Assembly (NCBI GenBank): GCA_903970625.1 | Contig: CAJCJG010000176.1 | Span: 1-35,654, forward strand | Origin: Solirubrobacterales bacterium 70-9 | GTDB lineage: Bacteria > Pseudomonadota > Alphaproteobacteria > Acetobacterales > Acetobacteraceae | Length of the DNA stretch: 35,654 nt | Direction of reading: 5' to 3' | Shown: positions 4,142-31,597 of the stretch, in pieces | Position numbering within the stretch: position 1 is the stretch's first letter | Layout: every line of letters starts with the position of its first letter | Position numbers and translations under genes: made by a program | Notes under the pieces: model-generated | What the model was told of the DNA's origin: nothing | What the model saw: only the letters and a program-made list of their open reading frames with translations | The model's database searches: none

Positions 4142-4172
4142 CGGCTTTCCTTTCGCATCTTTGCAACCAGTG

Positions 4173-4262
4173 ACCCGTCATCCCGGCGAAGGCCGGGGTC
4201 CAGGCCCACGCGAAAGTCGGGGCGGGTTCGCCTGGAGTCCGGCCTTCGCCGGAATGACGGGT
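4173..4262. repeat. REPIN-like inverted REP doublet, copy 1
   Basis: Two 32-nt arms (4173-4204 and 4231-4262) are inverted repeats of each other with about three differences, around a 26-nt centre. Each arm is itself a small hairpin built on GTCATYCCGGCGAA and GCCGGRRTCCAG. The same unit occurs at 22095-22185. Paired, inverted REP sequences of this kind are known in many proteobacteria and are moved by RAYT transposases encoded elsewhere. It lies between the amidase gene and the small ORF on the minus strand and could stabilise or attenuate that transcript. Confidence 0.8.
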
Positions 4263-4266
4263 GAGT

Positions 4267-5667: not shown

Positions 5668-5674
5668 GCGCCGG

Positions 5675-7102: not shown

Positions 7103-7121
7103 CGCAAAATCTCCAGTACTG

Positions 7122-8123: not shown

Positions 8124-9719
8124 CTACGCGGCAATAGGCTCGGGCGGGGCCGCGCGATGGAATGAAGTTTCGCGTTGGAACGCCGCCCCCACGCTCAGGC
8201 ACAGCGCGTCGTCGAACGGCTTGCCGACAATCTGCATCGCCAGCGGCAGTCCGGAACGCCCGATCCCGGTCGGCAGCATCAGCGCCGGCAGGCCGGTGTA
8301 GTCGAAGATCATGGTGTTGCGCGGCAGCACCAGTTGCAGCGGGTGCCGCATGCCGTTGACCTCTACCGTCATCGTGTCGAGGAACGCGGCCTCCGCCCCG
8401 ATCCCCGGCGTGATCAGCACGTCAACGTCGGCCATCGCCGCCAGCACGCGCCGAATCACCAGGGGGCGACGGCGCAGCGCGCGCAGATAGGCGCTAGCGG
8501 AGAAGGTCAGCCCCTGCTCGATCCGCGCCCGGGCGCCGGCATCGAACTCGTCCATCCGGCCGAAATCCGGCTCCTGTAAGCTCGCGAGTTCGGCCATGGT
8601 GATCAGGTAGCCGTCGGCATGCGGTGTTTCGATATCGCCCAGATCGACATCGACCAGCGTGGCACCCAGCCTCTCGAACACGGTCAGCCCAGCGCGCCAT
8701 GCCGCCAGCGCCGGCGCGTCCTGCATCTCCACGAACCAGCCGCCGGGCACGCCGACGCGCAAGCCTGCCATATCCGCGCGCGCCCGCGCCCCGTCGTACG
8801 CGCCGACGGACACCGGATCGTCGCCATCCGCGCCCGCGATCACCGGCATCACGGCGGCGAGATCGTCGGCCGAACGCGCCATCGGCCCGATATGGTCCAA
8901 TGACCAGGAGAGCGGCGCCACGCCCGTGCGCGGCACCAGCCCGCGTGTGGGCTTCAACCCGGTGATACCGCACCACGCGGACGGCACGCGGATCGAACCG
9001 CCGGTGTCTGTCCCCAACGCAAGGGGAAGCAGGCGGGCCGCGAGCATCGCGCCTGATCCGGTCGAGGAACCGCCGGTCCAGCGCGCCCTGTTCCACGGGT
9101 TGCGCACCGCGCCATAGCGCGGATTGTGAGCCGAGCCGCAGGCATATTCGGTCGTGCCGAGCATCGCCACCGGGATGGCGCCCGCCGCCCGCAAACGCGA
9201 CACCACGGCGGCATCCGCCGTCGCGATCCGCTCGTCCGTCAGGCGGGAGCCGCAGGTGACGCGTGTGTCCGCCACGTCGATGATGTCCTTGACGCCGAAC
9301 GGAATCCCCTCCAGCGGCCGCGCCCGCCCAGCCCGAATGCGCCTGGTGCTGTCGCGCGCCATCGCATCGGCCCCGCCGATCTCCGTCAGCACCGCCTCGC
9401 GGCTCGGGTGGGTAGCGCGGCGGATCGCCAGAGCGTCCAGCACAGCGATCGGGTCGGTGGTGCCGGCGGCATATGCGGCGAGAAGGTCCACAACCCCAAA
9501 CCCGTGCAACGGCCCGGTGGCCAGCGCCGTGGCAGGCATTGGCGTCGCTGCGGTGGCCTGCTTCGGGGCGGCAGCGCGAAAATCGCGCTCGGTCCAGCCG
9601 GGCTCCGGCGTCGCAGGCGAGTGTGCCGGCGGCAATTCGCTGCGGGCGTCGGTCGGCGCAGCCACCGTTCCGGCCAGGATGGTCGCACGCAGCACCTCGG
9701 CTGACACGGCTTGGTTCAT
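8124..9719 (-). CDS. Amidase-signature family amidase (second copy) with N-terminal extension
   Basis: A 531-residue amidase, first gene of the minus-strand operon. The catalytic triad is K144 (PFGVKDI), S218 (GGSSTGSG) and nucleophile S242 (GTDTGGSIR). The first 70 or so residues form an Ala/Pro/Thr-rich segment not found in the core fold and not present in the other amidase of this operon; recognisable amidase sequence starts near GFGVVDLLAAY. ATG 9719 is chosen because GGAG lies 6 nt upstream; an open extension to 9788 would run over the palindrome at 9777-9788. The stop is immediately followed by the start of the CobW-type gene. Two distinct amidases in one operon suggest successive amide cleavages or two substrates. 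Confidence 0.87.
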   Translation of the reverse strand: MNQAVSAEVLRATILAGTVAAPTDARSELPPAHSPATPEPGWTERDFRAAAPKQATAATPMPATALATGPLHGFGVVDLLAAYAAGTTDPIAVLDALAIRRATHPSREAVLTEIGGADAMARDSTRRIRAGRARPLEGIPFGVKDIIDVADTRVTCGSRLTDERIATADAAVVSRLRAAGAIPVAMLGTTEYACGSAHNPRYGAVRNPWNRARWTGGSSTGSGAMLAARLLPLALGTDTGGSIRVPSAWCGITGLKPTRGLVPRTGVAPLSWSLDHIGPMARSADDLAAVMPVIAGADGDDPVSVGAYDGARARADMAGLRVGVPGGWFVEMQDAPALAAWRAGLTVFERLGATLVDVDLGDIETPHADGYLITMAELASLQEPDFGRMDEFDAGARARIEQGLTFSASAYLRALRRRPLVIRRVLAAMADVDVLITPGIGAEAAFLDTMTVEVNGMRHPLQLVLPRNTMIFDYTGLPALMLPTGIGRSGLPLAMQIVGKPFDDALCLSVGAAFQRETSFHRAAPPEPIAA

Positions 9720-9776
9720 CGACGGCTCCGGCGGATTGCGCCCGCACGTCCAGCAAGATCGATGCCACGCATGCAC

Positions 9777-9789
9777 ATGTCCGGACATA
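9777..9789. promoter_or_regulatory. Palindromic candidate operator ATGTCCGGACAT upstream of the amidase operon
   Basis: ATGTCCGGACAT (9777-9788) is a perfect 12-bp palindrome 58 nt upstream of the first amidase start codon. The overlapping TGTCCGGACATA (9778-9789) recurs with one change at 189-200 in front of the ABC transporter. Size and symmetry fit a dimeric repressor such as a GntR-family protein, but no regulator is encoded nearby except the response regulator fragment at the left edge. Confidence 0.5.
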
Positions 9790-9811
9790 GGCAGTCGCCG
9801 ACGGCGCGTCG

Positions 9812-9836
9812 GGCAACCGCCAAAAATGCGGTCGCC
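9812..9836 (-). terminator. Possible hairpin terminator after the methyltransferase gene
   Basis: Arms 9812-9820 and 9828-9836 pair over 9 bp (one G-T wobble) around a 7-nt loop. It lies 44 nt beyond the methyltransferase stop and before the palindromic operator of the next operon, which fits an operon boundary. There is no clean T-tract after the stem, so it may instead be an RNA-stabilising hairpin. Confidence 0.35.
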
Positions 9837-9879
9837 GCCTGCCGCTTATTTCGGCACGAAGCGAGGACCGCGACGCACC

Positions 9880-10467
9880 CTATCCTCGGGCCAATACGTC
9901 CATTCTATAGTTTTGCGTCCGGAGACGATTCTGCACCGCAAACGCGGGACGGCTGCGCGCAATGAACAACTCCGCCGCCGTATCACCGTCGCATGGTCCA
10001 TCCGTCCGCCCAAGCCAGTTGACCAGAATGATAACGGTATCCTGGGTGGCACTCGCCTCTGCGCGTCGAGCCGTGGCAGCGATGTCGTGCGGATCCAGAA
10101 AATACAGGATTTCCGACAGCACCATCAGGTCGAACATTCCTGCCGGCCACTCGCCAGGAACAACAATCTTGGCGAACTCGACATTGGCACACTCGCCGCA
10201 CGTCTGCCTCGCCCGGCTCAACGGCACCTCGTCGACATCGAGTGCCAGCAGATTTTCGCAGTGTGCGGCCAGCAGGCGCGTCAAAACGCCGATGGAACAC
10301 CCAACCTCCAGACCGCTCCGAATTCTTCTGTCCGGAAGCAATCCGATCGTCGCAATGTATTTTTCCCGCTCGTAGTCGCTCGTGCGCATGCGCCAAGGGT
10401 CGCTTTCGCGACGATACATCGCCGCGAAATACTCCGGCGGGACAGATCGGCACGAATCAGATCGCAT
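9880..10467 (-). CDS. NodS-like class I SAM-dependent methyltransferase
   Basis: A 195-residue Rossmann-fold methyltransferase. The N-terminal run EYFAAMYRRESDPWRMRTSDYE is characteristic of the NodS group, whose founding member N-methylates the glucosamine end of nodulation factors. The SAM-binding motif LEVGCSIG (about 53-60) and the acidic strand end LALDVDE (about 74-80) are present. The ATG at 10467 lies inside the end of the glycosyltransferase gene (11-nt overlap), so the two are translationally coupled; an open extension to 10533 lies in that gene. It is the last gene of the seven-gene operon. It probably methylates an amine or hydroxyl on the glycosylated product, but membership in the NodS group does not imply nodulation. 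Confidence 0.82.
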   Translation of the reverse strand: MRSDSCRSVPPEYFAAMYRRESDPWRMRTSDYEREKYIATIGLLPDRRIRSGLEVGCSIGVLTRLLAAHCENLLALDVDEVPLSRARQTCGECANVEFAKIVVPGEWPAGMFDLMVLSEILYFLDPHDIAATARRAEASATQDTVIILVNWLGRTDGPCDGDTAAELFIARSRPAFAVQNRLRTQNYRMDVLARG

Positions 10468-11575
10468 CGGCGAATATTTCCGCGTGCCGAGCAGGTTTTT
10501 TTGCCTCAAGAGCATACAACACGTCGGCAGCATTGCGGATTTCGACTTCCAGATCGCTCGCAGGAATTAGCCGCCGATGAAGAACTGCACTCCGTTCCTC
10601 AAGTTGCTGCCACGCCGCGCCAAAACTCGAAGCACCCAACGCTCGCCGCACGACATCCTCCGTCAGCCGCAGACTCCGCGTCAGATCGTCGATCTTTTCG
10701 GAGCATCTGATCCAATGTGCGCGCGCCATCCGGCGCAGCAACACCCGCCGCGCCGTATCAGCCGCAGGTTCCAGGCAGTCGTCCAGCCACGTATCTGCCT
10801 GCCGCATCCGCCGCCGCATTGTGTCGGCCATGCCACCCTTCGCGCGACCATGAATCCGCCCAGACACAGTCACCAGCGTTTGCGGGCAATGCCGAATTCT
10901 GGCATCGACCCGCTGCAATGCGCGGAAGAACGCACGATCTTCGCCGACAGGGATGTCGGGGATTCCCCCTGCCCGGCGAAACATGTCGGCAGTCACGGCG
11001 ATGCTCGCGCCGGAATGTTGCACATGGCGCGGCCAAGGATCTGCCTTGTCGGGATCCAGCCTGCTGATAATTTCGTCCAGCATGCTCGCAAGAGTCTGCA
11101 CACGTTCTTCATCTTCGATCAATTCGCGCGGCAGTTCCGCGGCGTCCTCGGCATTCATTTCCACGCGCCCGGCGACGGCGTCCGCTCCTTCGGCAATCGC
11201 CACGATGTTGTTCGAAAACCAATCCGGCGCAACGCGCGAATCCGCGTCGGTTGTCAGCAGGATGCCGCGTGGGCCGGCGTGCGTGGCCGCCTGCTCCATG
11301 GCGATCCGCCGGGCAAGCCCCGCCGACGCTCGTTCCGCCGGCAGATTGCATTCGTAGAGGTGCAGCGCGAATGGCATACGCTTGCTGGCATCTTTAACGA
11401 TGGGCACTGTCGCATCGGTGCAATCGTTGAGCAGCAGCAACACCTCGAACGCGCGCGACTCGCGCTGACCCGCCAGGGCCTGGAGGCACGGCAGAATATG
11501 TCGTTCCTCATTCTTGACAGGGATGGCAACGACATGGCGGACGGTCGCGGTACGGAGTGAATTGAGGGAGGTCAT
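10457..11575 (-). CDS. Family 2 (GT-A) glycosyltransferase
   Basis: A 372-residue protein whose first half is a GT2 nucleotide-sugar-binding domain. The VVAIPVKNEE opening strand (about 15-24), LLLNDCTD (47-54) and a DxD-type motif TTDADS (108-113) are visible. A later VGEDRAFFRAL fits the acidic ED region of GT2 enzymes. No membrane helices are apparent, so it is likely cytosolic or peripheral. The C-terminal 120 residues are Arg-rich and helical, with no family I can name. ATG 11575 is chosen; a TTG two codons earlier is the only alternative and neither has a strong ribosome-binding site. It is separated from the PIG-L gene by 114 nt, the largest gap in the operon, and overlaps the methyltransferase gene by 11 nt. 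Donor and acceptor are unknown. Confidence 0.82.
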   Translation of the reverse strand: MTSLNSLRTATVRHVVAIPVKNEERHILPCLQALAGQRESRAFEVLLLLNDCTDATVPIVKDASKRMPFALHLYECNLPAERASAGLARRIAMEQAATHAGPRGILLTTDADSRVAPDWFSNNIVAIAEGADAVAGRVEMNAEDAAELPRELIEDEERVQTLASMLDEIISRLDPDKADPWPRHVQHSGASIAVTADMFRRAGGIPDIPVGEDRAFFRALQRVDARIRHCPQTLVTVSGRIHGRAKGGMADTMRRRMRQADTWLDDCLEPAADTARRVLLRRMARAHWIRCSEKIDDLTRSLRLTEDVVRRALGASSFGAAWQQLEERSAVLHRRLIPASDLEVEIRNAADVLYALEAKKPARHAEIFADAI

Positions 11576-11689
11576 GTCCAATGGAACCCGTTGCCAAACG
11601 TCTTTGAGTGTGTCTTCAAAGTAAGCAATGCGTCTGTGTCACTTGCAGTTCCAGCGAAACGCTCCGTTGCGAAATTCGTGAGCGCCGAC

Positions 11690-12421
11690 TCACGGCTCGG
11701 TCAAAAAGACTTCCTCGGTCGCGTCGGCGATGGAGAGCAGATTGGCCGGCAGATGAAAGCCATTGGGATCGTCGGTGATCAGCCCGCCGATCTGCGACCG
11801 GTGTGCCGCGACGGCGCGGTGCTTGGCCGGCAGATGCCGCGCGACGTCAAGCCGAAACCCCCTGATCTCACCGTCCAGTTTCTCCTCGCGCGGCAGCGTC
11901 CAACCCCATACCGGATAGGCGACATGCCGCAATGCCGAGGCCCTTGCGACGGCCGCCGCAAGGTGATGTACGGCCAGGTGATCGCAGTGCGGGTCATGGC
12001 GCCAGGGCCCCGCGACCGCAGTGCAACCAGCTGCGCGGGCGAACCCCGATATGATCCTCACCGCATCCTCGAATGCCTGCCCCTCATTCGGCGCAGCCGT
12101 GTCCGGCAATCCGAGAAATGCGATGCGCTCCGCATCCAGGCCGAGCAACGCCACGGCCTGCCGCGCCTCCGCCTCGCGCGTCGCTTTCAGGCGCTCCGCT
12201 GGAAAGGCTTTCGACCCTGGATGCGAGCCGACGCCGTCGGTGGCAATCACCACCACCGGCTGCCGCCCACGCGCGCAGCATTCGGCAATCATCCCGCCGC
12301 AGCCGAGGCTTTCGTCGTCCGCATGTGGTGCGAGAACAATCACCGCGCCCGGGCCAATGATATCGTCGAGATCGCCCAGCGGCAGGGCGCGCATCGCGTC
12401 ATGCGCCTCGCCGGCAGTCAT
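11690..12421 (-). CDS. PIG-L / LmbE-family zinc deacetylase
   Basis: A 243-residue member of the family that removes N-acetyl groups from GlcNAc-type conjugates (compare MshB and PIG-L). The metal motif appears as APHADDE: H33 and D36 are the expected zinc ligands and D35 the general base, with Ala replacing the usual Pro. The second metal region is DPHCDHLAVHH near residue 160. ATG 12421 overlaps the stop of the acyl-CoA-dehydrogenase-like gene as ATGA. An open extension to 12700 is a shadow of that gene. Together with the adjacent glycosyltransferase and methyltransferase it suggests that a sugar is added, de-N-acetylated and then methylated. The order of steps is inferred. Confidence 0.85.
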   Translation of the reverse strand: MTAGEAHDAMRALPLGDLDDIIGPGAVIVLAPHADDESLGCGGMIAECCARGRQPVVVIATDGVGSHPGSKAFPAERLKATREAEARQAVALLGLDAERIAFLGLPDTAAPNEGQAFEDAVRIISGFARAAGCTAVAGPWRHDPHCDHLAVHHLAAAVARASALRHVAYPVWGWTLPREEKLDGEIRGFRLDVARHLPAKHRAVAAHRSQIGGLITDDPNGFHLPANLLSIADATEEVFLTEP

Positions 12422-13488
12422 AGAGAACTCGGCATCGCATGGCCCACGAAGTGCGCAGCCGCTTCGGCAAGCGCCTCGTCCATGGCCGGCTGACGAAGGT
12501 AGGTCGCAAGGTCGCGCATCTGGCGTTCGGCCGGGTTGCCCTCGACAAACGCGCTCAGCCCAAGCGAGCGTTGCACCAATTCCAGCATTGTGAGCCCCGC
12601 CATTTCCACTGCCCGGCGGGCCAGATTGACGTAGCCCGTCATCGCGGCAGCAGAGGCGTCTGTCGCCACCAAGCGCGCGCATTCCCGGCTCCACAGCCAC
12701 GCCGTCTGCTCCGCGATCAGCGATTGCGCGATGCGTTCAGCTTGCCATGGCGCGCCGTCGCGACCGCGCGCACGCAATTGCTCGCGCAGCATCTCGCCCA
12801 GCGTGCCAATCCCGCCGGTCAGTGCTGCGAGGGTGCGCCATGCTCCTGCGGAGAATTCCGGTTCGCGCATATAATCTCCGGCTTGCCCGATCCAATCCTC
12901 GGCATCCGGGCGATAGCCGCGGAAGTCGATCCATCCCGCCTGCGTCGCACGCATCCCGAGCAAACGGCCCGGCATAGCGCCGGCGGACATATCGGGTGCA
13001 AGCGTGACCATCAGCATGCGTGCTTCGTCGGGGTGGCCGACGGTGATCACCGCACGGGTCGCGGCGACGGCAGCGGAGCAGTTGATCTTCTTGCCGCTCA
13101 AGGCTCCGTCCTGGAGATGGACACCCGGTGGCTCCTCGGTATTCCAGATGCCGAACAGATGTCCCAGAGCGGCATCGCCTGCGGCCCGCGCGAGTTGCGC
13201 GTCCGTGCCGTATCGCCAAATCAGCCATAGTGCGTTGACATGGCCTTCGATCAGCCTGCCGACGGCCAGATTGGCGCTACCGATCAGCCGCAGGAGATCG
13301 AATAGCTCCTGACCCAGGCCGAGGCCGCCGACACGGCAGGGCAATGTTGCTACCAGCACGCCGCACCGGCGCAGTGCCTCCATGTCGTCCCACGGAAAAC
13401 CGGCGTTTCTGTCGAGCGACGCCGCATTGCGGCGCATGTCCGGCAGCAATGCAGCCACGTCGGCGAACAATCGCTGCACATCGCCCAT
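12418..13488 (-). CDS. Acyl-CoA dehydrogenase-like flavoprotein
   Basis: A 356-residue protein with the acyl-CoA dehydrogenase fold layout: an N-terminal helical part (LRRCGVLVATLPCRVGGLGLG), a middle beta region around residues 115-200 and a C-terminal helical bundle. It is shorter and more divergent than catabolic acyl-CoA dehydrogenases, and I cannot identify the usual catalytic glutamate. Flavin-dependent monooxygenases of the DszC type share this fold, so a hydroxylase or N-oxygenase role is possible. It starts 2 nt after the Rieske-FAD gene and overlaps the PIG-L gene by 4 nt, so it is tightly coupled to both. The neighbouring reductase could supply electrons. An open extension to 13854 covers the reductase gene and is rejected. 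Confidence 0.75.
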   Translation of the reverse strand: MGDVQRLFADVAALLPDMRRNAASLDRNAGFPWDDMEALRRCGVLVATLPCRVGGLGLGQELFDLLRLIGSANLAVGRLIEGHVNALWLIWRYGTDAQLARAAGDAALGHLFGIWNTEEPPGVHLQDGALSGKKINCSAAVAATRAVITVGHPDEARMLMVTLAPDMSAGAMPGRLLGMRATQAGWIDFRGYRPDAEDWIGQAGDYMREPEFSAGAWRTLAALTGGIGTLGEMLREQLRARGRDGAPWQAERIAQSLIAEQTAWLWSRECARLVATDASAAAMTGYVNLARRAVEMAGLTMLELVQRSLGLSAFVEGNPAERQMRDLATYLRQPAMDEALAEAAAHFVGHAMPSSL

Positions 13489-13490
13489 TC

Positions 13491-15032
13491 TCAAACACTC
13501 GCGACAATCGCACGCGCGTCGGACAGGCTTAGGCGGTTTCGCATCGGCTCGATCAGCCGCGCCGTCGCCGTCTCGTGGCCACAGGCGATGACGCCCGCCA
13601 CCATTCCGTCGTTCACCTGAAACGCAACAAAATCCTGCGCTGCGGGATTGCCGTCGATGTGCAGTTCGTCCCACCGGTCGGCGTGGCCGAGATACTCGAA
13701 TCGCTTGCCATAGTGATACGTCCAAAAGAACGGAACGCCGTCGTAGTGCGCCGTTCTGCCCATCATGCCCTGCACCGCGACGCGGGCCTGCTGCTGGGCG
13801 ACGCGCCAGTGTTCGATTCGCACGGCCTGGCCGTTCAGCGGGAACCGCGTGCAATCGCCCGCGACGAACAGCGCATCGGCCGCGCGCATCCCGGAATCGA
13901 CGATGATGCCGCCGTCATCGGCCTTTTCGACGCCCTCGACTCCATCGGTGGCGGGCCGCACGCCGGTTCCGACGATCACGCTCGCCGCATCCAGCCTGGT
14001 GCCGTCGTTCAGGACAACCTGCCGAACACGACCGTCGCCTTCCAGCCGCACGATCTCGGTCCCAAGGTGGAAGCTCACCCCATTGGCTTCGTGTAGTTGC
14101 CGAAACATCGTCCCGAGGCGCTCGCCGAATTGGCGGGCGAACGGCACCTTGTCCGGCCCGACGACGACGACATTGACTCCTCGCTTGCGCAGTGCAGATG
14201 CGGCTTCAAGGCCGATGAAGCTGCTTCCCATGATGACGGCGCTGCCACCTTTACGGGTCTCCGCCAGGATTGCCGCAGCATCGGACAGGTTGCGCAACGT
14301 GCGAACGCCCTGCAAATCGATGCCCGGCAGGACCGGCCGCTTGGCCAGTCCGCCCGTGGCCAGCAACGCCGTGTCGTACGTGGTGGTAGAGCTATCTGCG
14401 AACGAGATGGTTCGCGTGCGGGCATCCACCCGGGTCACGGTCGCGTCGATCTGCTCCACGTCCATGGCATCCCAGTCGTTTTTATCGCGCAAGGGCGGCA
14501 CATCGGCTGCCGCCATTTCTCCGCCGACGACGAACTTGCTGAGCGCAGTGCGATCGTACGGCTGTAAAGCTTCGTCGCCGATCAGAAGCACCCGGCCGTC
14601 GAAACCCTGGTCCCGCAGGGCCGATGCGGCGGCTGCACCCGCCGCGCCGCTGCCGATGATCGCCGCGATCCGCTCATTGCGGCGCCGCGCCGGCACAGGT
14701 GCAGTGAATGGCTCTGGCGAAATGACGACCCGGTCGCCGTCGATACGGACTTCGTAGCGCGTCAGGGCGTACAGCGACGGCGGTTCCACCAGCGCACCAT
14801 CCTGGATGGCGAATGTCGCCTTGTGCCAGGGGCAGATCAGCCGCCCGTTGCAGATCGCCCCGTCTTCCAGTGGCGCGCCGGCATGTGGGCATTCCCCTGC
14901 GAATGCGCGCACAACCTCGCCGTGCCTGATCAGCACGACCGGCGAAGACCCAAGCATCACCTTGGTGATCTTGCCTTCCGCCAGCTCCGAGAGACCGACT
15001 GTCGCTTGCATGACGGGCAAATGCAGCAGCAT
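13491..15032 (-). CDS. Rieske [2Fe-2S] / FAD pyridine-nucleotide-disulfide oxidoreductase fusion (AIFM3-like)
   Basis: A 513-residue redox protein. An N-terminal Rieske domain carries C48-x-H50 (CPHAG) and C67-x2-H70 (CPWHK). It is followed by a FAD domain with IIGSGAAGAAAA from about residue 125, an inserted NAD(P)H-binding domain with VIMGSSFIGLEAA, and the second FAD contact ALFVAGDC. A C-terminal domain of the reductase type follows. The layout matches AIF-like/AIFM3 proteins and the reductases of Rieske oxygenase systems, with ferredoxin and reductase in one chain. The ATG at 15032 is next to a 7-bp inverted repeat that contains the GGA of its ribosome-binding site. It sits between the efflux gene (21-nt gap) and the flavoprotein gene (2-nt gap) and probably feeds electrons to the latter. 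Confidence 0.87.
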   Translation of the reverse strand: MLLHLPVMQATVGLSELAEGKITKVMLGSSPVVLIRHGEVVRAFAGECPHAGAPLEDGAICNGRLICPWHKATFAIQDGALVEPPSLYALTRYEVRIDGDRVVISPEPFTAPVPARRRNERIAAIIGSGAAGAAAASALRDQGFDGRVLLIGDEALQPYDRTALSKFVVGGEMAAADVPPLRDKNDWDAMDVEQIDATVTRVDARTRTISFADSSTTTYDTALLATGGLAKRPVLPGIDLQGVRTLRNLSDAAAILAETRKGGSAVIMGSSFIGLEAASALRKRGVNVVVVGPDKVPFARQFGERLGTMFRQLHEANGVSFHLGTEIVRLEGDGRVRQVVLNDGTRLDAASVIVGTGVRPATDGVEGVEKADDGGIIVDSGMRAADALFVAGDCTRFPLNGQAVRIEHWRVAQQQARVAVQGMMGRTAHYDGVPFFWTYHYGKRFEYLGHADRWDELHIDGNPAAQDFVAFQVNDGMVAGVIACGHETATARLIEPMRNRLSLSDARAIVASV

Positions 15033-15048
15033 CGGCGGAGTTCCGCCG
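15033..15048. promoter_or_regulatory. Inverted repeat covering the ribosome-binding site of the Rieske-FAD gene
   Basis: CGGCGGA, a 2-nt gap, and TCCGCCG form a perfect 7-bp inverted repeat directly before the ATG at 15032 and 6 nt after the MFS stop. On the minus-strand transcript the GGA is the only plausible Shine-Dalgarno sequence, so folding could limit translation. The 2-nt centre means the actual loop would be larger. Confidence 0.3.
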
Positions 15049-15053
15049 GGGCC

Positions 15054-16586
15054 TCAATGTCCTGCGGCTTGCGCACCCTTGGGCGCCTTGCGCAGAAACA
15101 GCACCAGCGGCGCCACGCAAACGGAGATCACGGCAAGTACCTGGAAAATGTCGATATAGCTCAACATTGTGGCCTGAGTCTGCACCATCGCGCCCATGGC
15201 CGCGAGCCCGCGGCCGTGCAAATCGTCGTAGCGCGTGACGTGTTCGGCAAGGCGTTCGTGATGAAACTGCTCCCGCCATTGCAGCAGCGTGGTGGTGAAC
15301 GAGACGCCGACGCTTCCGCCCAGATTGCGCATCAGGTTGATGATCGCCGAAGCCTCGTTGGTCTTGTCGGCCGGTATTCCGATGTAGGAAGCGGCGCTGA
15401 TCGGGATGAATAGAAACGGCAGGGCCACCACCTGGAGGGCGCGCGCTTCGGCCAGAGAGCCGAACGAGATCGACAGGTCGAAGCCCGTCATGTGATAGAG
15501 CGAGAACGCCGTCATCAGGAGCGCCGGCAGCAGCAGCCATTTCGGCTGGATCTTGCTGCTGAGGATGCCGGCGACCGGCATCAGCACGATCGTCACGATG
15601 CCGCCGAGAGCCAGAGTGAGGCCCGCGTCGATGGCGTCGTAGCCGAGCAGCTCCTGCGTGAATTGCGGCAGCAACTGTGTTGTGCTGATCAGCATGAAGC
15701 CGATAATGAACATCACCGTGCAGGAAATGGCGAACGAGGGAATCGCGAGCAGGCGGACATTGACCACCGGCTGCCGGTTGTAGATTTCCCACACCACGAG
15801 GATCGCGAGCGCCGATACGCAAAGGATGGAGAGCGCAGCGATGAAGTGGGAGGAGAAGCCATCGTCCTGCTGAAACCGGTCCAGCACCACTTGCAGCGTC
15901 CCGAAGCCAAGGGCGACCAGAGCGAAGCCGACATAGTCGATGGAAAGGCCGCGCGACAGCAGCTTGCGGCGGTCGTCCTGCAACGCTTTCGGCTCATAGA
16001 CGAACAGGTAGGTCAGCGTCAGCGACAACATCCCGAACGGCACGTTGATCAGAAACACCCAGTGCCAGGAATAGCTGTCCGTCAGCCAGCCGCCCAGCGC
16101 CGGCCCGATCGCGGGAGCGACCACGACAGTCAGGCCATACAGCGCGAAGGCCTGCGAGCGCATCGCCGGCGGAAAACTATCGGCGAAAATCGATTGCTCG
16201 GTGGGCGCAAGCCCGCCTCCGCCTATCCCCTGGATGACACGGAACACGATCATCATTGGCAGCGACGTCGCAAAGCCGCAGAACACCGAACTGACGGTGA
16301 AGATCCCAACGCAAATCATGTAAAACCGCTTGCGGCCGACGACGTTGGACAGCCAACCGCTGATCGGCAATACGATGGCGTTGGACACCAGATAGCTGGT
16401 TAGCACCCAGGTGCTTTCGTCCTGGCTCGCGGCCAGCCCCCCGGCGATGTGGCGCAGCGCGACGTTGGCGATGGTCGTGTCCAGCACTTCCATGAAGGTC
16501 GCGATGGAAACGATCACCGCGATCAGCCACGGGCTGTTCGGCCCGGCGGCCGAGCGCGGCAGATTGGCGTAAGCGCCGGACGCCAC
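15054..16586 (-). CDS. DHA2-family MFS drug/metabolite exporter (EmrB-like)
   Basis: A 510-residue inner-membrane exporter with about 14 hydrophobic helices. It shows the DHA2 signatures: LDTTIANVALRHIAG in helix 1, the loop-2 segment SNVVGRKRFY, and motif C in PAIGPALGGWL in helix 5. The GTG start is 3 nt after the stop of the HlyD-family gene. With that protein it forms an EmrAB-type proton-driven pump spanning the inner membrane and periplasm, completed by a TolC-like channel encoded elsewhere. Its place in an operon with biosynthetic genes suggests it exports their product rather than acting as a general drug pump; this is inferred. Confidence 0.9.
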   Translation of the reverse strand: MASGAYANLPRSAAGPNSPWLIAVIVSIATFMEVLDTTIANVALRHIAGGLAASQDESTWVLTSYLVSNAIVLPISGWLSNVVGRKRFYMICVGIFTVSSVFCGFATSLPMMIVFRVIQGIGGGGLAPTEQSIFADSFPPAMRSQAFALYGLTVVVAPAIGPALGGWLTDSYSWHWVFLINVPFGMLSLTLTYLFVYEPKALQDDRRKLLSRGLSIDYVGFALVALGFGTLQVVLDRFQQDDGFSSHFIAALSILCVSALAILVVWEIYNRQPVVNVRLLAIPSFAISCTVMFIIGFMLISTTQLLPQFTQELLGYDAIDAGLTLALGGIVTIVLMPVAGILSSKIQPKWLLLPALLMTAFSLYHMTGFDLSISFGSLAEARALQVVALPFLFIPISAASYIGIPADKTNEASAIINLMRNLGGSVGVSFTTTLLQWREQFHHERLAEHVTRYDDLHGRGLAAMGAMVQTQATMLSYIDIFQVLAVISVCVAPLVLFLRKAPKGAQAAGH

Positions 16587-16589
16587 GCC

Positions 16590-17819
16590 TCACCGGACCT
16601 TGACGCGCGGCACGACGGACAGGCCGGGGGCGAGGTGCAAATCGTCGATGCGCAGGTCGTCGAACACGATCTTCACCGGCAGGCGCTGCATGACTTTCAC
16701 ATAGTTGCCGGTGGCGTTCTCGGCCGGCAGCACGCTGAAGGCGGAGCCGGTGCCGGTCTGGAAACTATCCACCTTGCCGTGAAAAATCTTGTCGGGATAA
16801 GCGTCGAGATCGATGTCCACCGGGTCGCCCGGCTTCATGTCGGCGAGTTGGGTTTCCTTGAAATTGGCCGTGACCCAGACTTGGCCGGGCACGACCGCGA
16901 CCAGCGCCTGGCCGGGCGTGGCATAGGTGCCGACTTCGACGTTGCGCTTGGCGACGCGGCCGGCGATGGGTGCTGCGATGGTTGTGTAGGACAATTGCAA
17001 CTCGGCGTTCGCCACGTCCACTTGCGCACCACGCACCTGGGCCTCCGCCGCCTTCACCTGCGCTGCCGCTGCATCCACCTGTGCTTGCGCGCCGGTGACG
17101 GCATGGCGGTTGGCGTCCAGCCGCGCTTGAGCGGTGCGGGCCTGCGCGGTGGCGCTGTCCACCTGTTGGCGTGTCGTCGCGCGCGGGTCGATGGCGCGTT
17201 GGCGGGCAAGATCCTGTTGCGCTTGCAGCAACTCCGCCTCGCCGACCCGGACCTGCGCCTGCGCCTGATCCGCGTTGGCCTGTTGCAGGGCCAGTTGCGC
17301 GCGCGCCTGAGTCAGTTGCGCCTCGGCATTGCCAAGGCTGGCGTTCGCCTGATCGAGTTTTTTCTGGAAGTCGCGCGGGTCGATCTGCATCAGCACTTGC
17401 CCGGCCGCGACCTGTTGGTTGTCGTCGAAAAGCACCTTGGTGATCTGGCCCGCGACTTGGGACGAGACGTTGGCGATGTGCGCGTCGATGAACGCATCGT
17501 CGGTGGTTTCGTAGTCACGGGTCGAAAGCCAGTAATACACCCCGCCACCGATCAACAGCACCAGTAGCAGACCGGCAATGATGAAAGGCAGCGCCCTCCG
17601 GAACGGAGATTTCGGTTTGGCCGGCTTCTCGTCGCCGCCTTCGTCTGGCTCGTTCTCCTTGTCCTTGTCGTCAGGCTTGTTATGCGCGCCGTCCTGAAAC
17701 CCCTCGCGATAGCCATGCTTGAAAGCGCGCGTCTCGCTGAACAGACCGATGCCGGACGACATGGGTTGCGAGGCAGAGGCAACGGCGTCGCCTTGAATCG
17801 GGTGTCCGTCAGCCGCCAT
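16590..17819 (-). CDS. HlyD/EmrA-family membrane fusion protein
   Basis: A 409-residue periplasmic adaptor, first gene of the seven-gene operon. It has a cytoplasmic N-terminus of about 75 residues rich in Asp, Glu and Lys, then one transmembrane helix (about 77-98). The EmrA-type YETTDDAFIDAHIANVSS strand follows, then a biotinyl-lipoyl-like half, a long Ala/Gln-rich coiled coil (about 135-270), the second lipoyl half and a beta-barrel domain. ATG 17819 has GAGG about 10 nt upstream. It is transcribed divergently from the PRC-barrel gene across a 217-nt region. The charged cytoplasmic N-terminus is longer than in E. coli EmrA. Confidence 0.9.
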   Translation of the reverse strand: MAADGHPIQGDAVASASQPMSSGIGLFSETRAFKHGYREGFQDGAHNKPDDKDKENEPDEGGDEKPAKPKSPFRRALPFIIAGLLLVLLIGGGVYYWLSTRDYETTDDAFIDAHIANVSSQVAGQITKVLFDDNQQVAAGQVLMQIDPRDFQKKLDQANASLGNAEAQLTQARAQLALQQANADQAQAQVRVGEAELLQAQQDLARQRAIDPRATTRQQVDSATAQARTAQARLDANRHAVTGAQAQVDAAAAQVKAAEAQVRGAQVDVANAELQLSYTTIAAPIAGRVAKRNVEVGTYATPGQALVAVVPGQVWVTANFKETQLADMKPGDPVDIDLDAYPDKIFHGKVDSFQTGTGSAFSVLPAENATGNYVKVMQRLPVKIVFDDLRIDDLHLAPGLSVVPRVKVR

Positions 17820-18036
17820 GCGGTTGGCCTCGCGTTCGCCTCATTGCGTCAGGCGTACGGGACCGCCGGGCCGCCGCACTCAAACCGAACGCGCGACGCC
17901 TTCGGCAGGTTCCCACCCGGCGGCAGCAATCGGCGGGCGCGGCACGATCACAAACGCCGGATCGCCACCGGGCGGCGGAACCGCAGCCCGGAATATGCCG
18001 TTGTCCGACACTCGAAGACTTCAAAAGGAGCTTGTA

Positions 18037-18588
18037 ATGAGGACGCTTCCAGCAATCATCGGCGGTCTCGGTCTGACCATTGCTTTGGCGGGGCCAAGCT
18101 TCGCGCAACAGGTCGCGGCCACCACGGATCAGGCACCGGCGGTGACGAGCAACCAGACCGAGAGCGGCCCGAATGGCAGCCTGCAACGGTATCACGGCGC
18201 CTTCCGCGCCAGCAAACTGGTCGGCTCCAACGTGTATAACCAGTCCGGCCAAACCGTCGGCTCGGTGGACGATCTGCTGATCGGCGAGGACGGCAAGATC
18301 TCGCAGGCGGTGGTCTCGGTCGGCGGCTTCCTCGGCATCGGCGGCAAGTTGGTGGCGGTGCCGTTCAACGAATTCAAGTTCGTCGAAAGCCGCAAATCCA
18401 CCACGGCGGATAGCGCCGTCGCCCCGATGGAACCGACAACCGCGACCGTGAACACGCCCCCCGCGAACGCCACGCTGCCCGCGAAAACCAGTGCGGCAGC
18501 GGCTGAGCCGGTCTATTTCAGCGTCGTGCTACCGAGCGCCACCAAGAGTTCCCTGAGCAGCGCGGCCGAATTCAAGTACGCCGGCTGA
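18037..18588 (+). CDS. Secreted PRC-barrel domain protein
   Basis: A 183-residue protein with a clear signal peptide (residues 1-23, ending SFA before QQ). A PRC-barrel domain follows at about 58-115, recognisable by KLVGSNVYNQSGQTVGSVDD and the following strands. The C-terminal third is low-complexity Ala/Thr/Pro/Ser. ATG 18037 has AAGGAG 7 nt upstream; the frame is open from 17818 but without a start of this quality. The role is unknown; exported PRC-barrel proteins are common in alphaproteobacteria and often linked to envelope or stress functions. A strong hairpin terminator follows, so it is probably monocistronic and separate from ligD. Confidence 0.85.
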   Translation: MRTLPAIIGGLGLTIALAGPSFAQQVAATTDQAPAVTSNQTESGPNGSLQRYHGAFRASKLVGSNVYNQSGQTVGSVDDLLIGEDGKISQAVVSVGGFLGIGGKLVAVPFNEFKFVESRKSTTADSAVAPMEPTTATVNTPPANATLPAKTSAAAAEPVYFSVVLPSATKSSLSSAAEFKYAG

Positions 18589-18598
18589 ATCTGGGCGC

Positions 18599-18630
18599 GG
18601 GCACCGGCGCAGCGGGCGGCGCCGGTGCCC
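18599..18630 (+). terminator. Hairpin terminator after the PRC-barrel gene
   Basis: A perfect 12-bp stem (18599-18610 with 18619-18630) around an 8-nt loop begins 11 nt after the PRC-barrel stop and is followed by TTGT. The T-run is short, but the stem is long and entirely GC-rich. It separates the PRC-barrel gene from ligD, whose start is 28 nt downstream. Confidence 0.65.
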
Positions 18631-18658
18631 TTGTCTCGGACCAGCGGCGAAGAACAGG

Positions 18659-21169
18659 ATGGCGATGCCCGACACCTCGGCCTACCGCGCCAAACGCGAT
18701 TTCACGGTCACGTCCGAACCCAGCGGGGCGGCCGGTGGGGGCCGTGCCGGCCTGTTCGTCGTGCAGAAGCACGCGGCCAAGCGGGCGGGATTGCACTGGG
18801 ATTTCCGGCTGGAGCATGGCGGCGTGCTGTGGAGCTGGGCGGTGCCGAAAGGCCCGTCGATGGACCCGGCGGACAAGCGGCTCGCGATCCATGTCGAGGA
18901 TCATCCGGTCGATTACGCGGATTTCCAGGGCGCCATCCCGGCCGGCCAGTATGGCGGCGGCGAGGTCGAGACGTGGGATCGCGGCCAATGGCAGCCGCTC
19001 GGGGATCCGGACGAGGGGATGCGCAAGGGCGAAATCGCCTTCACGCTCGCCGGCCGGCGCCTGAACGGCCGCTTCACGCTCGTCCGCCTGCGCAACCGCG
19101 ACACGCGCAAGGCCGAGGCTTGGTTCCTGATCAAAGGCCACGACGACGCGGCGCAGCCGGGTGCCACCGCCCCCGCGCTGGAAAAAACCGTCGCGTTGGC
19201 GGGCGGCCAGCCCACAGCCGGCGCCGTGCGCGGCGCCATCCCGGCCGCTCAGGCGCCGCAACTCTGCGACACGGCGACAGCGCCGCCGGACGGCGACGGC
19301 TGGATCAGCGAAATCAAATTCGACGGTTATCGCCTGCTGGCCCGGATCGCGGACGGCCGCGTGCGGCTGATCACGCGCAACGGCCACGACTGGGCGGACC
19401 GGCTGCCGTCGGTGGCCAAAGCGTTCGCGCAGCTGGAGCTGGACTCCGCCGTGCTGGACGGCGAACTGGTGGCCTTGCGGCCGGACGGCACTACCAGTTT
19501 CCCCGATCTGCAAGCGGCCCTGTCGGACGGCCACGACGCAAAGCTGCACTTCTACGTGTTCGATCTGCTGGCCCTGAACGGCTGGGATTTGCGCCCGTGC
19601 CCGCTGCTGGAGCGCAAGCGCGTGCTGCAAGGGCTGGACCCGTGGCAGGGAGATCTGCGATTCAGCACCCATGTCGAGGGCCGACAGGCGGCGATGCAGC
19701 GCCATGCCTGCGAGATGAAGCTGGAAGGCATCGTCTGCAAGCGTGCGGACGCGCCCTATCGCGCGGGGCGCTGGCATGTCTGGGTGAAGGTGAAATGCCT
19801 CGGCCGCGAGGAATTCGTCGTGCTCGGCTGGACGCCGCCGTCCGGCCACCGCACCGGCTTTGGCGCGCTGCATCTCGGCTACTACGATCCGGCCGGCGGT
19901 CTGCACTACGCGGGCGGCGTCGGCAGTGGCTTCTCGGAACGCGACCTCGCCGACCTGCGCCAGCGCCTCGACGGCCTGAAAGCGCCGGCGCCCGACATGC
20001 AGATCGCCGGCGACCCGCCCGATGCCACGATAAGCTGGGTGCGGCCGGACCTGGTGGCGGAGGTCGAATTCACCGCATGGTCCGGCGCCGGGCGGCTGCG
20101 GCACGCCGTCTTTCTCGGCCTGCGGGAGGACAAGGCGGCCCGCGAGGTGGTGCGCGACGCGGCCGACCCGGATGCGGCGCGCAAGGCGGTGCCGGCGGCA
20201 GCCAGCCGCATCGTCGTCGCACGCGCGCCGAAGCGGGCGGCCACGAAAGTCGGCGGCGTGGAAGTGACTCACCCGGACCGCGAACTGTGGCCCGGCATCA
20301 CCAAGCGCGATCTGGCCGACTATTGGCTGCGTGTCGCCGACGCGGCGCTGCCAGGTCTGGCGCATCGCCCGCTGTCCATCGTGCGCTGCCCGGACGGGAT
20401 CGGAGCCGAGCATTTCTTCCAAAAGAACGGCCACGGCCATCTGCCGGTGCAGATTCGGGAAAACTCCGTCTCCGGCTCGCCGTATCTCGCCATCGACGAT
20501 GCCGGCGGGCTGGTGGCGCTGGCGCAAATGTCGGCCATCGACCTGCATCCGTGGGGGGCGACCGAAGCCGATCCGCTATACCCGGACCGGCTGGTGTTCG
20601 ACCTCGACCCCGGCGAGGACGTGGCCTTCGGCGCCGTCGTGGCCGCGGCGCGCGATGTGCGGGAGCGGTTGCAGCGCCTGGACCTGGCCTCGTTCTGCCG
20701 CACCAGCGGCGGCAAGGGGCTGCATGTCGTAGTCCCGCTCGTGCCGCGCGCGGACTGGGCGCAGGCCAAGGCGTTTTGCCACGCCTTCGCCGAGACGATG
20801 GCGCAGGAGGCGCCGGACAGATACGTGGCCCACGTCAAGATCGCGGACCGGCGCGGGCGCGTGCTGGTGGACTGGCTGCGCAACGGCCTGGGCGCCACGG
20901 CCGTCGCCTCGTTCTCGCCACGCTCGCGCCCCGGCGCCGGGGTCGCGACGCCGCTGGCATGGCGCGAGGTGACGGACCGGCTGGACCCCGCAAAATTCAA
21001 CCTGCTGACGGTCCCCGGCCGCCTCGCCAAACTGAAGCAGGACCCGTGGGAGGGGTTTGCCGGCACCGCGCAATCGCTGCCCGATCTCGCGCCGCCGCCC
21101 GCCCCGGCCACGCCCCGCACCGGCGGCAGCATCGTCGTCGCCCGCAAGCCGAAACGCCGCTCGCCCTAA
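18659..21169 (+). CDS. ligD: Multifunctional ATP-dependent DNA ligase LigD (PE-LIG-POL)
   Basis: An 836-residue non-homologous end-joining ligase. Domain order is a 3'-phosphoesterase domain (about 30-160, with QKH, LHWDFRLE and VEDHP), an adenylating ligase domain with nucleophile K220 in EIKFDGYR plus its OB-fold (about 200-515), and a primase-type polymerase domain (about 535-820). The polymerase domain has the metal-binding aspartates D648 and D650 in FDLDPGE. All three active sites look intact. Two ATGs compete: 18659 and 18665; the second has AGGA five bases upstream and may be the real start. The ku gene follows after 12 nt, so the pair is one operon. The enzyme fills, trims and seals double-strand breaks held by Ku. 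Confidence 0.95.
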   Translation: MAMPDTSAYRAKRDFTVTSEPSGAAGGGRAGLFVVQKHAAKRAGLHWDFRLEHGGVLWSWAVPKGPSMDPADKRLAIHVEDHPVDYADFQGAIPAGQYGGGEVETWDRGQWQPLGDPDEGMRKGEIAFTLAGRRLNGRFTLVRLRNRDTRKAEAWFLIKGHDDAAQPGATAPALEKTVALAGGQPTAGAVRGAIPAAQAPQLCDTATAPPDGDGWISEIKFDGYRLLARIADGRVRLITRNGHDWADRLPSVAKAFAQLELDSAVLDGELVALRPDGTTSFPDLQAALSDGHDAKLHFYVFDLLALNGWDLRPCPLLERKRVLQGLDPWQGDLRFSTHVEGRQAAMQRHACEMKLEGIVCKRADAPYRAGRWHVWVKVKCLGREEFVVLGWTPPSGHRTGFGALHLGYYDPAGGLHYAGGVGSGFSERDLADLRQRLDGLKAPAPDMQIAGDPPDATISWVRPDLVAEVEFTAWSGAGRLRHAVFLGLREDKAAREVVRDAADPDAARKAVPAAASRIVVARAPKRAATKVGGVEVTHPDRELWPGITKRDLADYWLRVADAALPGLAHRPLSIVRCPDGIGAEHFFQKNGHGHLPVQIRENSVSGSPYLAIDDAGGLVALAQMSAIDLHPWGATEADPLYPDRLVFDLDPGEDVAFGAVVAAARDVRERLQRLDLASFCRTSGGKGLHVVVPLVPRADWAQAKAFCHAFAETMAQEAPDRYVAHVKIADRRGRVLVDWLRNGLGATAVASFSPRSRPGAGVATPLAWREVTDRLDPAKFNLLTVPGRLAKLKQDPWEGFAGTAQSLPDLAPPPAPATPRTGGSIVVARKPKRRSP

Positions 21170-21181
21170 AAGGACACCGCC

Positions 21182-22030
21182 ATGGCCGCCCTACATCCGA
21201 TCTGGACCGGCCATCTCCGGCTGGCGCTCGTCTCCTGCCCCGTCGCGCTGTTCAGCGCCAATCACGACAGAGGTTCGCTCCATTTCAACCTGATCAACCC
21301 AAAAACCGGCAACCGCATCCGCATGGTGGCGCAAGATGCGGAGACCGAGACGGAAGTCTCCCGCCGCGATCTGGTGAAGGGCTACGAGTTCAAGAAGGAC
21401 ACGTATCTCATTTTGACCGACGAGGATTTCGAGAGCGCGCGCATCGACAGTTCCTCCACCATCAAAATCGAAAAATTCGTCGATGTCGCCTCGGTCGATC
21501 CGATCTATTTCGATTCGAGCTATTACCTCGCGCCGGACGGCGATGCCGGCCGCGACGTGTACGCCGTGCTGCGCGAGGCCATCGGCGGCACTGGCAAGAT
21601 GGCGCTCGCCCGCGTGGTGATCGCGCGGCGCGAGCGGGCAATCGGCATCCTGCCGATGGGCAAGGGCCTTGTCGCGCACACGCTGCACGAGGAGCGCGAC
21701 CTGAACGACGCCGACGCCCTGTTTGGCGACCTGCCGCGCGGCAAGCCCGACCCGGAGATGGTGCAACTCGCCACACAACTGATCGCGCGGCAGGCCGGCA
21801 CCTACGATCCCGCCGACGTGGAAGACCGCTACGAAGCCCGGCTGCGCGCCGTCATCGACGCGAAGCTGAAGGGCGAAGGCGTCTCCGCCGACGACGAGCC
21901 GGACCCGGACGCCGCCACCGTCGTGGACCTGATGACCGCCCTCAAACGCAGCCTCGGCGAGACCGGCAAGCCGAAAACGGCGAAACCGGCAAAGTCGCCC
22001 GCAAAGCGATCGACCAAACGCTCCGCATAG
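21182..22030 (+). CDS. ku: Ku homodimeric DNA end-binding protein
   Basis: A 282-residue bacterial Ku starting AALHPIWTGHLRLALVSCPV, typical of the family. The Ku core beta-barrel covers about residues 1-255, with the conserved EKFVDVASVDPIYFD stretch near 95-110. A short C-terminal tail is rich in Lys, Pro and Ala, the type of extension that contacts DNA and recruits LigD. ATG 21182 has AAAAGGA 8 nt upstream and lies 12 nt after the ligD stop. No second ku is in the window. A REP doublet begins 65 nt after the stop. Confidence 0.95.
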   Translation: MAALHPIWTGHLRLALVSCPVALFSANHDRGSLHFNLINPKTGNRIRMVAQDAETETEVSRRDLVKGYEFKKDTYLILTDEDFESARIDSSSTIKIEKFVDVASVDPIYFDSSYYLAPDGDAGRDVYAVLREAIGGTGKMALARVVIARRERAIGILPMGKGLVAHTLHEERDLNDADALFGDLPRGKPDPEMVQLATQLIARQAGTYDPADVEDRYEARLRAVIDAKLKGEGVSADDEPDPDAATVVDLMTALKRSLGETGKPKTAKPAKSPAKRSTKRSA

Positions 22031-27368: not shown

Positions 27369-27516
27369 CGCGGGCCGATAGCGGGCCGATCCGCGTCGGC
27401 GTGACCGTCGCCGGGACGTGATCGCGACGGGGGGCGACAGCGTGCCGCTCCGCACCAATCTGCATTGGCAGCGGTGCCCGATATCCGGCAGCCGCCTCAC
27501 GGCCTGGGCGAGAAAC

Positions 27517-31568: not shown

Positions 31569-31597
31569 TTGACGCGCTGGGGGAGGCGGCGTATAAC
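31569..31597 (+). promoter_or_regulatory. Sigma-70-type promoter of rpoH
   Basis: TTGACG (31569-31574) and TATAAC (31592-31597) are spaced exactly 17 nt, a near-consensus housekeeping promoter. Transcription would start near 31604 and give an untranslated leader of about 195 nt before the rpoH ATG. The leader contains the 12-bp palindrome GGCGCATGCGCC at 31745-31756. Confidence 0.7.

What the first reader, a model, noticed from the sequence alone, without database searches (positions are those of the whole stretch)
9880..17819. Seven-gene make-modify-export operon with Nod-factor-like logic but different enzymes
Seven minus-strand genes are packed with gaps of 3, 21, 2, -4, 114 and -11 nt: EmrA-like, EmrB-like, Rieske-FAD reductase, acyl-CoA-dehydrogenase-like flavoprotein, PIG-L deacetylase, GT2 glycosyltransferase, NodS-like methyltransferase. 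A glycosyltransferase, a sugar de-N-acetylase and a NodS-type methyltransferase are the steps of lipochitooligosaccharide tailoring, here with PIG-L in place of NodB and with a two-protein redox module and a dedicated pump. No PKS, NRPS, acyltransferase or chain-elongation gene is present, so the core molecule must come from elsewhere or be a simple metabolite. I recall PIG-L/methyltransferase/GT/ACAD neighbourhoods in other proteobacteria without an assigned product; that is from memory.
Basis: partly seen in the sequence, partly recalled or inferred. Interest (0 to 1): 0.7.

Follow-up and report, generated by a model that had tools for sequence, protein, structure and literature searches.

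The report
Four-gene stress-linked amino-sugar pathway
Four of the seven genes (glycosyltransferase, sugar deacetylase, methyltransferase and an unusual flavoenzyme) travel together across distant bacteria, often beside stress and DNA-repair genes, and probably build an unknown modified amino-sugar molecule; the pump and reductase beside them here are local neighbours, not part of the conserved unit.

Summary
The seven genes, coordinates and gaps are as described. The unit is not. In 148 related neighbourhoods the acyl-CoA-dehydrogenase-like flavoprotein (ACAD), PIG-L, NodS-like methyltransferase (MT) and GT2 recur together, whereas the Rieske-FAD reductase never appears and the EmrA/EmrB pump appears in 4/2. 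Across 200 genomes of the order, ACAD and GT2 co-occur perfectly (both in 64, neither in 136), and all four are present in 61 of the 70 genomes with any; nine genomes lacking a local PIG-L each carry one elsewhere. The block reaches other proteobacterial classes, Deinococcus and Nostoc. Three Deinococcus plasmids fuse the ACAD to a GH1-like glycosidase domain. The ACAD lacks the dehydrogenase glutamate by sequence register; its top-scoring solved relatives include the sugar N-oxygenase KijD3. Here the operon starts at an exact EcfG (general stress response) promoter motif, divergent from a second one for PRC-LigD-Ku; relatives put the block beside catalase, Ku/LigD, trehalose genes or Dps. Best reading: a stress-linked pathway that adds an N-acetyl-amino sugar to an unknown acceptor, then deacetylates, methylates and oxidises it. 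Nod-like only by analogy: no NodABC nearby, MT far below the NodS cut-off. Product unknown; I found no paper describing it.

The parts
12418..13488 (-). ACAD-like flavoprotein, core gene 1 (356 aa); the dehydrogenase catalytic Glu is not at its usual register
   Evidence: Pfam; profile best hits KijD3, TdsC, DszC; model pLDDT 94.4, ACAD-superfamily fold; invariant RDL-x3-LRQ-x3-D motif
11690..12421 (-). PIG-L (LmbE-like) de-N-acetylase, core gene 2; ATGA overlap with the ACAD gene
   Evidence: Pfam 1.1e-21; P-H-x-D-D-E and D-x-H-x-D-H motifs invariant in 20 homologues; closest solved: TT1542, diacetylchitobiose deacetylase, BshB
10457..11575 (-). GT2 glycosyltransferase, core gene 4; GT-A domain plus C-terminal helices
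   Evidence: Pfam; model pLDDT 92, nearest folds WrtF, TarS, RmlT; DAD and ED motifs invariant
9880..10467 (-). NodS-like SAM methyltransferase, core gene 3; 11-nt overlap with GT2
   Evidence: Pfam NodS 5.7e-15; below NCBIfam NodS cut-off; solved relatives 4isc, then NodS 3ofj
13491..15032 (-). Rieske-FAD NADH reductase; locally attached, not part of the conserved block
   Evidence: 0 of 148 neighbourhoods; homologues elsewhere in the genome of relatives
15054..16586 (-). EmrB-type DHA2 MFS transporter; locally attached
   Evidence: TIGR00711 423 bits, above cut-off; near the block in 2 of 148 loci
16590..17819 (-). EmrA-type periplasmic adaptor; locally attached, first gene of the operon
   Evidence: TIGR00998 275 bits; near the block in 4 of 148 loci; Acidisoma relative in an ordinary EmrAB-OMF operon
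17888..17913 (-). EcfG-type promoter motif GGAAC-N17-CGTT in front of EmrA
   Evidence: same motif class (N16) in front of phyR in this genome
17977..18002 (+). divergent EcfG-type promoter motif GGAAC-N17-CGTT in front of the PRC-barrel / LigD / Ku genes
   Evidence: motifs on both strands in 0.018% of shuffles of the intergenic stretch
18037..18588 (+). PRC-barrel protein (context)
   Evidence: Pfam PRC 4e-14
18659..21169 (+). DNA ligase D (context, stress and DNA repair)
   Evidence: Pfam LigD domains
21182..22030 (+). Ku (context, stress and DNA repair)
   Evidence: Pfam Ku 1.5e-37

Best explanation
The functional unit is a conserved four-gene pathway (ACAD-like flavoprotein, PIG-L, NodS-like methyltransferase, GT2) that builds or tailors an amino-sugar glycoconjugate. 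Proposed order: GT2 transfers an N-acetyl-amino sugar to an unknown acceptor; PIG-L removes the N-acetyl group; the NodS-like enzyme methylates the freed amine; the ACAD-fold flavoprotein, which lacks the dehydrogenase base at its usual place, oxygenates the amine or the sugar in the manner of the sugar N-oxygenase KijD3. In this genome the block lies downstream of an EmrAB pump and a Rieske-FAD reductase and is probably read from an EcfG (general stress response) promoter divergent from PRC-LigD-Ku, so the product is probably made under stress. Shown: the unit, its distribution, the motifs, the active-site residues of PIG-L, the presence of the GSR genes. Inferred: substrates, order of steps, N-methylation, N-oxygenation, actual stress induction.
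For: Unit: 148 neighbourhoods, order ACAD-PIGL-MT with GT2 adjacent; same order in proteobacteria outside the alpha class, in Nostoc and in Deinococcus; presence/absence in 200 genomes ACAD-GT2 64 both, 0 one only, 136 neither, all four in 61 of 70; PIG-L found elsewhere in 9 of 9 genomes lacking it locally; distance matrices correlate 0.80-0.91, without a background control. Sugar chemistry: PIG-L catalytic motifs intact; NodS-like Pfam match; GT-A fold; GH1-like domain with PVNEI and ETG motifs fused to the ACAD in three Deinococcus plasmids; blocks embedded among further glycosyltransferases in Sphingobium, Novosphingobium and Deinococcus AJ005. Oxygenase reading: KijD3, TdsC, DszC and nitrososynthases among best profile hits. 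Stress: divergent EcfG motifs, PhyR-NepR-EcfG present with the same motif at phyR, Ku/LigD, catalase, TreZ or Dps beside the block in relatives; ku-ligD is a known EcfG target (PMC7083833).
Against: No product, substrate or phenotype is known. Fold comparison does not separate dehydrogenase from monooxygenase, and no flavin reductase is in the block. The EcfG motif is not enriched genome-wide (78 against 88 in the reversed control) and is not in front of ACAD in relatives (1 of 148, against 8 of 106 for GT2), so GSR control is local rather than general. Some Methylobacterium loci have ACAD and MT without a local PIG-L or GT2, or ACAD alone, and three family genomes lack a family PIG-L altogether.
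Confidence: 0.58

Rival explanations
1. The flavoprotein is a true dehydrogenase/desaturase acting on an acyl or thioester moiety, so the block makes or modifies an acylated amino sugar (glycolipid), not an N-oxidised one.
For: Fold ties with real acyl-CoA dehydrogenases (VIA-align Z about 38-40); annotated as acyl-CoA dehydrogenase in public records.
Against: By sequence register the YEGT loop carrying the catalytic Glu is replaced by RQPAPD, with R, Q and the D invariant (the MCAD motif is from memory); no acyltransferase, acyl carrier or CoA-ligase gene was recognised among the recurrent neighbours (judged from sequence clusters); the best profile hits are monooxygenases. An alternative base position, as in isovaleryl-CoA dehydrogenase, was not tested.
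Confidence: 0.25
2. One reading: one seven-gene make-modify-export operon in which the pump exports the product and the Rieske reductase feeds the flavoprotein.
For: Tight spacing and one promoter region here; the Rieske and ACAD genes are 2 nt apart.
Against: Rieske 0 of 148, EmrA 4 of 148, EmrB 2 of 148 neighbourhoods; Rieske nearly independent of the block across 200 genomes; closest plasmid EmrAB lies in an ordinary efflux operon.
Confidence: 0.08
3. The block modifies a polymer (capsule, LPS or exopolysaccharide) rather than making a small metabolite.
For: Extra glycosyltransferases, UDP-galactopyranose mutase and catalase beside the block in Sphingobium, Novosphingobium and Deinococcus AJ005; GT2 weakly matches exopolysaccharide GT models.
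Against: No flippase, polymerase or polysaccharide export gene was recognised among the recurrent neighbours (judged from sequence clusters); most loci hold only the four genes as a constant set.
Confidence: 0.3
4. A low-molecular-weight thiol pathway like bacillithiol or mycothiol (glycosylation, PIG-L deacetylation, further tailoring).
For: Best curated PIG-L match is BshB1; stress-gene context.
Against: 49 bits against a cut-off of 182.5; the glycosyltransferase is GT2, not the GT4 type of BshA/MshA; no cysteine ligase was recognised among the recurrent neighbours.
Confidence: 0.07

Closest known systems
Nod-factor (lipochitooligosaccharide) biosynthesis, NodC-NodB-NodS
   Same: Set of functions: GT2, removal of N-acetyl from a sugar, N-methylation of the freed amine by a NodS-like enzyme; the MT matches Pfam NodS.
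   Different: PIG-L (CE14) instead of NodB (CE4); no NodA, no NodC-type chitin synthase, no nod genes nearby; MT 66.7 bits against the NodS cut-off of 300; adds a flavoprotein; stress rather than symbiosis context.
GlcNAc-X then GlcN-X pathways: bacillithiol BshA/BshB, mycothiol MshA/MshB, HpnI/HpnK (BHT-glucosamine), GPI PIG-A/PIG-L
   Same: A glycosyltransferase paired with a de-N-acetylase; the PIG-L metal and catalytic motifs are intact.
   Different: Partners differ (methyltransferase and ACAD-fold enzyme) and mostly the GT family too; all curated equivalog cut-offs scanned are missed by a wide margin.
KijD3 / DnmZ / ORF36 sugar N-oxygenases (group D flavin monooxygenases, ACAD fold)
   Same: ACAD fold; KijD3 is the top-scoring solved relative of the profile; sugar-pathway context.
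   Different: About 20% identity; no dTDP-sugar pathway or flavin reductase in the block; N-oxygenation not shown.
EcfG / PhyR-NepR general stress response regulon with ku-ligD
   Same: Exact GGAAC-N16/17-CGTT motif at phyR and at the bidirectional promoter between PRC-LigD-Ku and this operon.
   Different: Regulation is predicted only; most relatives show no such motif in front of the ACAD gene.

Membership tests
Nod-factor biosynthesis | MT meets the curated NodS equivalog cut-off | tested here: not met
   66.7 bits, cut-off 300
Nod-factor biosynthesis | NodA, NodB and NodC linked to the block | tested here: not met
   none among the window genes scanned with Pfam, and none annotated in the plasmid neighbourhoods read; not searched genome-wide
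Nod-factor biosynthesis | product is an N-methylated, acylated chitooligosaccharide | not testable with these tools
   needs chemistry
PIG-L / CE14 de-N-acetylases | metal-binding and catalytic motifs (P-H-x-D-D-E, distal H) present | tested here: met
   invariant H33, D35, D36, E37, H145, H148 in 20 sequences; Pfam 78 bits, cut-off 28.2
bacillithiol deacetylase BshB1 | curated cut-off | tested here: not met
   49 bits, cut-off 182.5
acyl-CoA dehydrogenases proper | catalytic Glu in the YEGT loop | tested here: inconclusive
   position reads RQPAPD by sequence register, but the register rests on the MCAD motif from memory and an alternative base position was not tested
acyl-CoA dehydrogenase superfamily fold | three-domain ACAD fold | tested here: met
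   model pLDDT 94.4; Z 38-40 over about 345 residues
group D flavin monooxygenases | closest sequence relatives are monooxygenases | tested here: inconclusive
   KijD3, TdsC, DszC top the profile search but true dehydrogenases follow closely; fold does not separate them
group D flavin monooxygenases | cognate flavin reductase | tested here: inconclusive
   none in the conserved block; a reductase encoded elsewhere in the genome was not searched for
EmrAB pump | EmrB curated cut-off | tested here: met
   423 bits, cut-off 230.2
EcfG general stress regulon | GGAAC-N16/17-CGTT promoter and PhyR-NepR-EcfG in the genome | tested here: met
   NepR by profile, PhyR and EcfG recognised by eye from their sequences
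EcfG general stress regulon | EcfG-dependent transcription | not testable with these tools
   needs RNA data from wild type and an ecfG mutant

The most novel reading that the evidence does not exclude
A previously undescribed, widely shared bacterial stress metabolite or surface glycoside, containing an N-methylated and flavin-oxidised amino sugar, made by this four-gene pathway in organisms from Acetobacteraceae to Deinococcus and cyanobacteria.
Probability: 0.25. Interest if true: 0.82.

Novelty: new variant of a known kind. Interest (0 to 1): 0.58.

Why it matters
It picks out, from annotated but unexplained genes, a compact pathway whose four members track each other almost perfectly across genomes and sit among oxidative-stress, trehalose and DNA-repair genes in unrelated bacteria, including Deinococcus. 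If it makes a protective amino-sugar compound, it would be a common stress product that annotation hides under 'acyl-CoA dehydrogenase', 'NodS' and 'PIG-L' labels. It also warns against using the NodS label as a sign of nodulation functions: public records carry the GO term 'nodulation' on these methyltransferases.

Tried and rejected
A seven-gene unit was rejected on 148 neighbourhoods and 200-genome profiles. Full NodS membership was rejected on the curated cut-off. A general EcfG promoter in front of the ACAD gene was rejected (1 of 148), as was genome-wide motif enrichment. Literature searches for the gene set gave no description; the library holds only open papers. Sequence search for the N-terminal Deinococcus domain found no solved structure and only weak GH35/GH1/GH53 hits, but it aligns with the neighbouring GH1 protein and keeps both Glu motifs. 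Fold comparison could not decide dehydrogenase against oxygenase, nor the GT2 donor sugar. A fusion among the four core domains was looked for and not found. No sigma-70 promoter-like site was found in 9600-18700.
Full report
OBSERVATION. The seven ORFs, strands, coordinates and gaps are right. Pfam and NCBIfam agree with the family names, with limits: the methyltransferase reaches 66.7 bits against the NodS cut-off of 300, PIG-L 49 against the BshB1 cut-off of 182.5, and the flavoprotein matches only the N-terminal acyl-CoA dehydrogenase domain in Pfam.

THE UNIT IS FOUR GENES. I compared all seven proteins with 60 neighbourhoods from the same order and 88 more from plasmids and named species. 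ACAD-PIGL-MT runs contiguously with GT2 beside it: 67 loci have ACAD+ PIGL+ MT+ GT2-, 17 have GT2 in front, and 3 have the window's own order ACAD-PIGL-GT2-MT (including Gluconacetobacter diazotrophicus PA1 5). PIG-L is found in 109, MT in 134 and GT2 in 109 of the 148 ACAD loci. The Rieske-FAD gene is in none, EmrA in 4, EmrB in 2, LigD in 15. These loci overlap in part (some species appear in two collections) and were selected by ACAD. With HMMs the same order appears in proteobacterial genomes outside the alpha class (L207-L218), and the genes appear together in Nostoc (L037), Deinococcus (L036, L224, L225) and an Acidipila MAG (L135).

PRESENCE AND ABSENCE. In 200 genomes of the order (analysed) ACAD occurs in 64, PIG-L in 65, GT2 in 64 and MT in 67 (three weak MT hits set aside). 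ACAD and GT2 coincide in every genome. All four are present in 61 of the 70 genomes with any. The Rieske gene, at similar frequency (69), has Jaccard 0.32 with the block against 0.89-1.00 within it. Fisher p-values (down to 6e-54) ignore kinship and are only a guide. Nine genomes whose ACAD locus lacks PIG-L each carry one strong family PIG-L elsewhere, so the dependence survives loss of linkage. The same-genus sister genome lacks a block-type ACAD (best 88 bits; it is 87% complete), which with the lower GC3 of GT2 and MT (0.67-0.68 against 0.83-0.87 in most flanking genes) is consistent with horizontal gain or patchy loss. Pairwise distances of the four proteins correlate at 0.80-0.91; without a housekeeping control this is only consistent with joint inheritance.

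WHAT THE ENZYMES LOOK LIKE. PIG-L keeps all the catalytic and metal positions; its solved relatives include diacetylchitobiose deacetylase and BshB. The MT resembles 4isc and NodS, and more weakly phosphoethanolamine methyltransferases. GT2 has a confident GT-A domain and a helical C-terminal part, nearest to WrtF, TarS and RmlT, donor unresolved. The ACAD model is confident (pLDDT 94.4); its profile hits KijD3, TdsC, DszC, MsuC and nitrososynthases together with true dehydrogenases, and by fold all tie. The loop that carries the catalytic glutamate in acyl-CoA dehydrogenases reads RQPAPD in the family consensus (RQPAMD in the window; register set with the MCAD motif from memory). Group D monooxygenases share this fold and include N-hydroxylating enzymes (PMC6165268; PMC5481743), so an oxygenase role is plausible, not shown. 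In three Deinococcus plasmids the ACAD is fused to an N-terminal domain of about 400 residues that aligns with the GH1 protein next door in one of them and keeps PVNEI and ETG, which ties the flavoprotein to glycoside chemistry.

STRESS CONTEXT. In this genome the 220-nt stretch between EmrA and PRC-LigD-Ku holds exact GGAAC-N17-CGTT motifs on both strands, seen in 0.018% of shuffles. The genome has NepR by profile and, read by eye at that locus, EcfG, a histidine kinase and a divergent PhyR with GGAAC-N16-CGTT in front. Genome-wide the motif is not in excess (78 against 88 reversed controls), so the case rests on position. ku-ligD and an adjacently numbered efflux gene are EcfG targets in Sphingopyxis granuli (PMC7083833). 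In relatives the motif is in front of GT2 in 8 of 106 loci (0.48 expected) but not in front of ACAD (1 of 148). Independently, the block lies beside KatE-type catalase in Sulfitobacter, Sphingobium, Novosphingobium and Paracoccus, Mn-catalase and a universal stress protein in Roseivivax, TreZ in Paracoccus, Dps in Deinococcus AJ005 and Ku/LigD in Bradyrhizobium (counts, without a formal background).

MECHANISM, WITH GRADES. Shown: four-gene unit, distribution, PIG-L active site, folds, motifs. Likely (about 0.65): an amino-sugar glycoconjugate is the product class. Less sure (about 0.4): N-methylation of the freed amine. Open (about 0.5): oxygenation rather than dehydrogenation. Likely in this organism (about 0.7): EcfG control. 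The pump and reductase may serve the product here, but nothing comparative says they must.

NOVELTY. The logic is that of known GlcNAc-X / GlcN-X and Nod-factor pathways; the combination with an ACAD-fold enzyme, the breadth and the stress setting are, as far as the open literature searched here goes, undescribed. I file it as a new variant of a known kind.

Noticed in passing
L036:6750-9089, L224:4741-7113, L225:4714-7077: Deinococcus ACAD homologues carry an N-terminal GH1-like glycosidase domain with both catalytic Glu motifs; it scores below all Pfam and NCBIfam cut-offs.
   Followed up: partly
L129:11035-11610, L179:11035-11622: Methylobacterium loci with an ACAD homologue alone, followed by a gene that looks like a cytochrome b561.
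   Followed up: no
G021:C1:1368608-1372057 and G041:C12:147721-148880: Broken remnants of the block: in G021 a split ACAD and stop codons in ACAD, GT2 and MT matches; in G041 shortened PIG-L and MT without ACAD or GT2.
   Followed up: no
L036:9806-12418 and L224:7121-8473: A DEAD/DEAH helicase gene (D. radiodurans) and a TnpB gene (D. wulumuqiensis) interrupt the block at different places.
   Followed up: no
window 902-9788: ABC transporter and permease, amidase, amidohydrolase, CobW GTPase and a second amidase form a separate cluster downstream of the operon.
   Followed up: no
window 25209-28647: Cache-domain hybrid histidine kinase followed by an OpgC-type gene (osmoregulated glucan succinylation family).
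   Followed up: no
window 31569-32687: A sigma-70 family factor (regions 1.2, 2 and 4), possibly RpoH-like.
   Followed up: no
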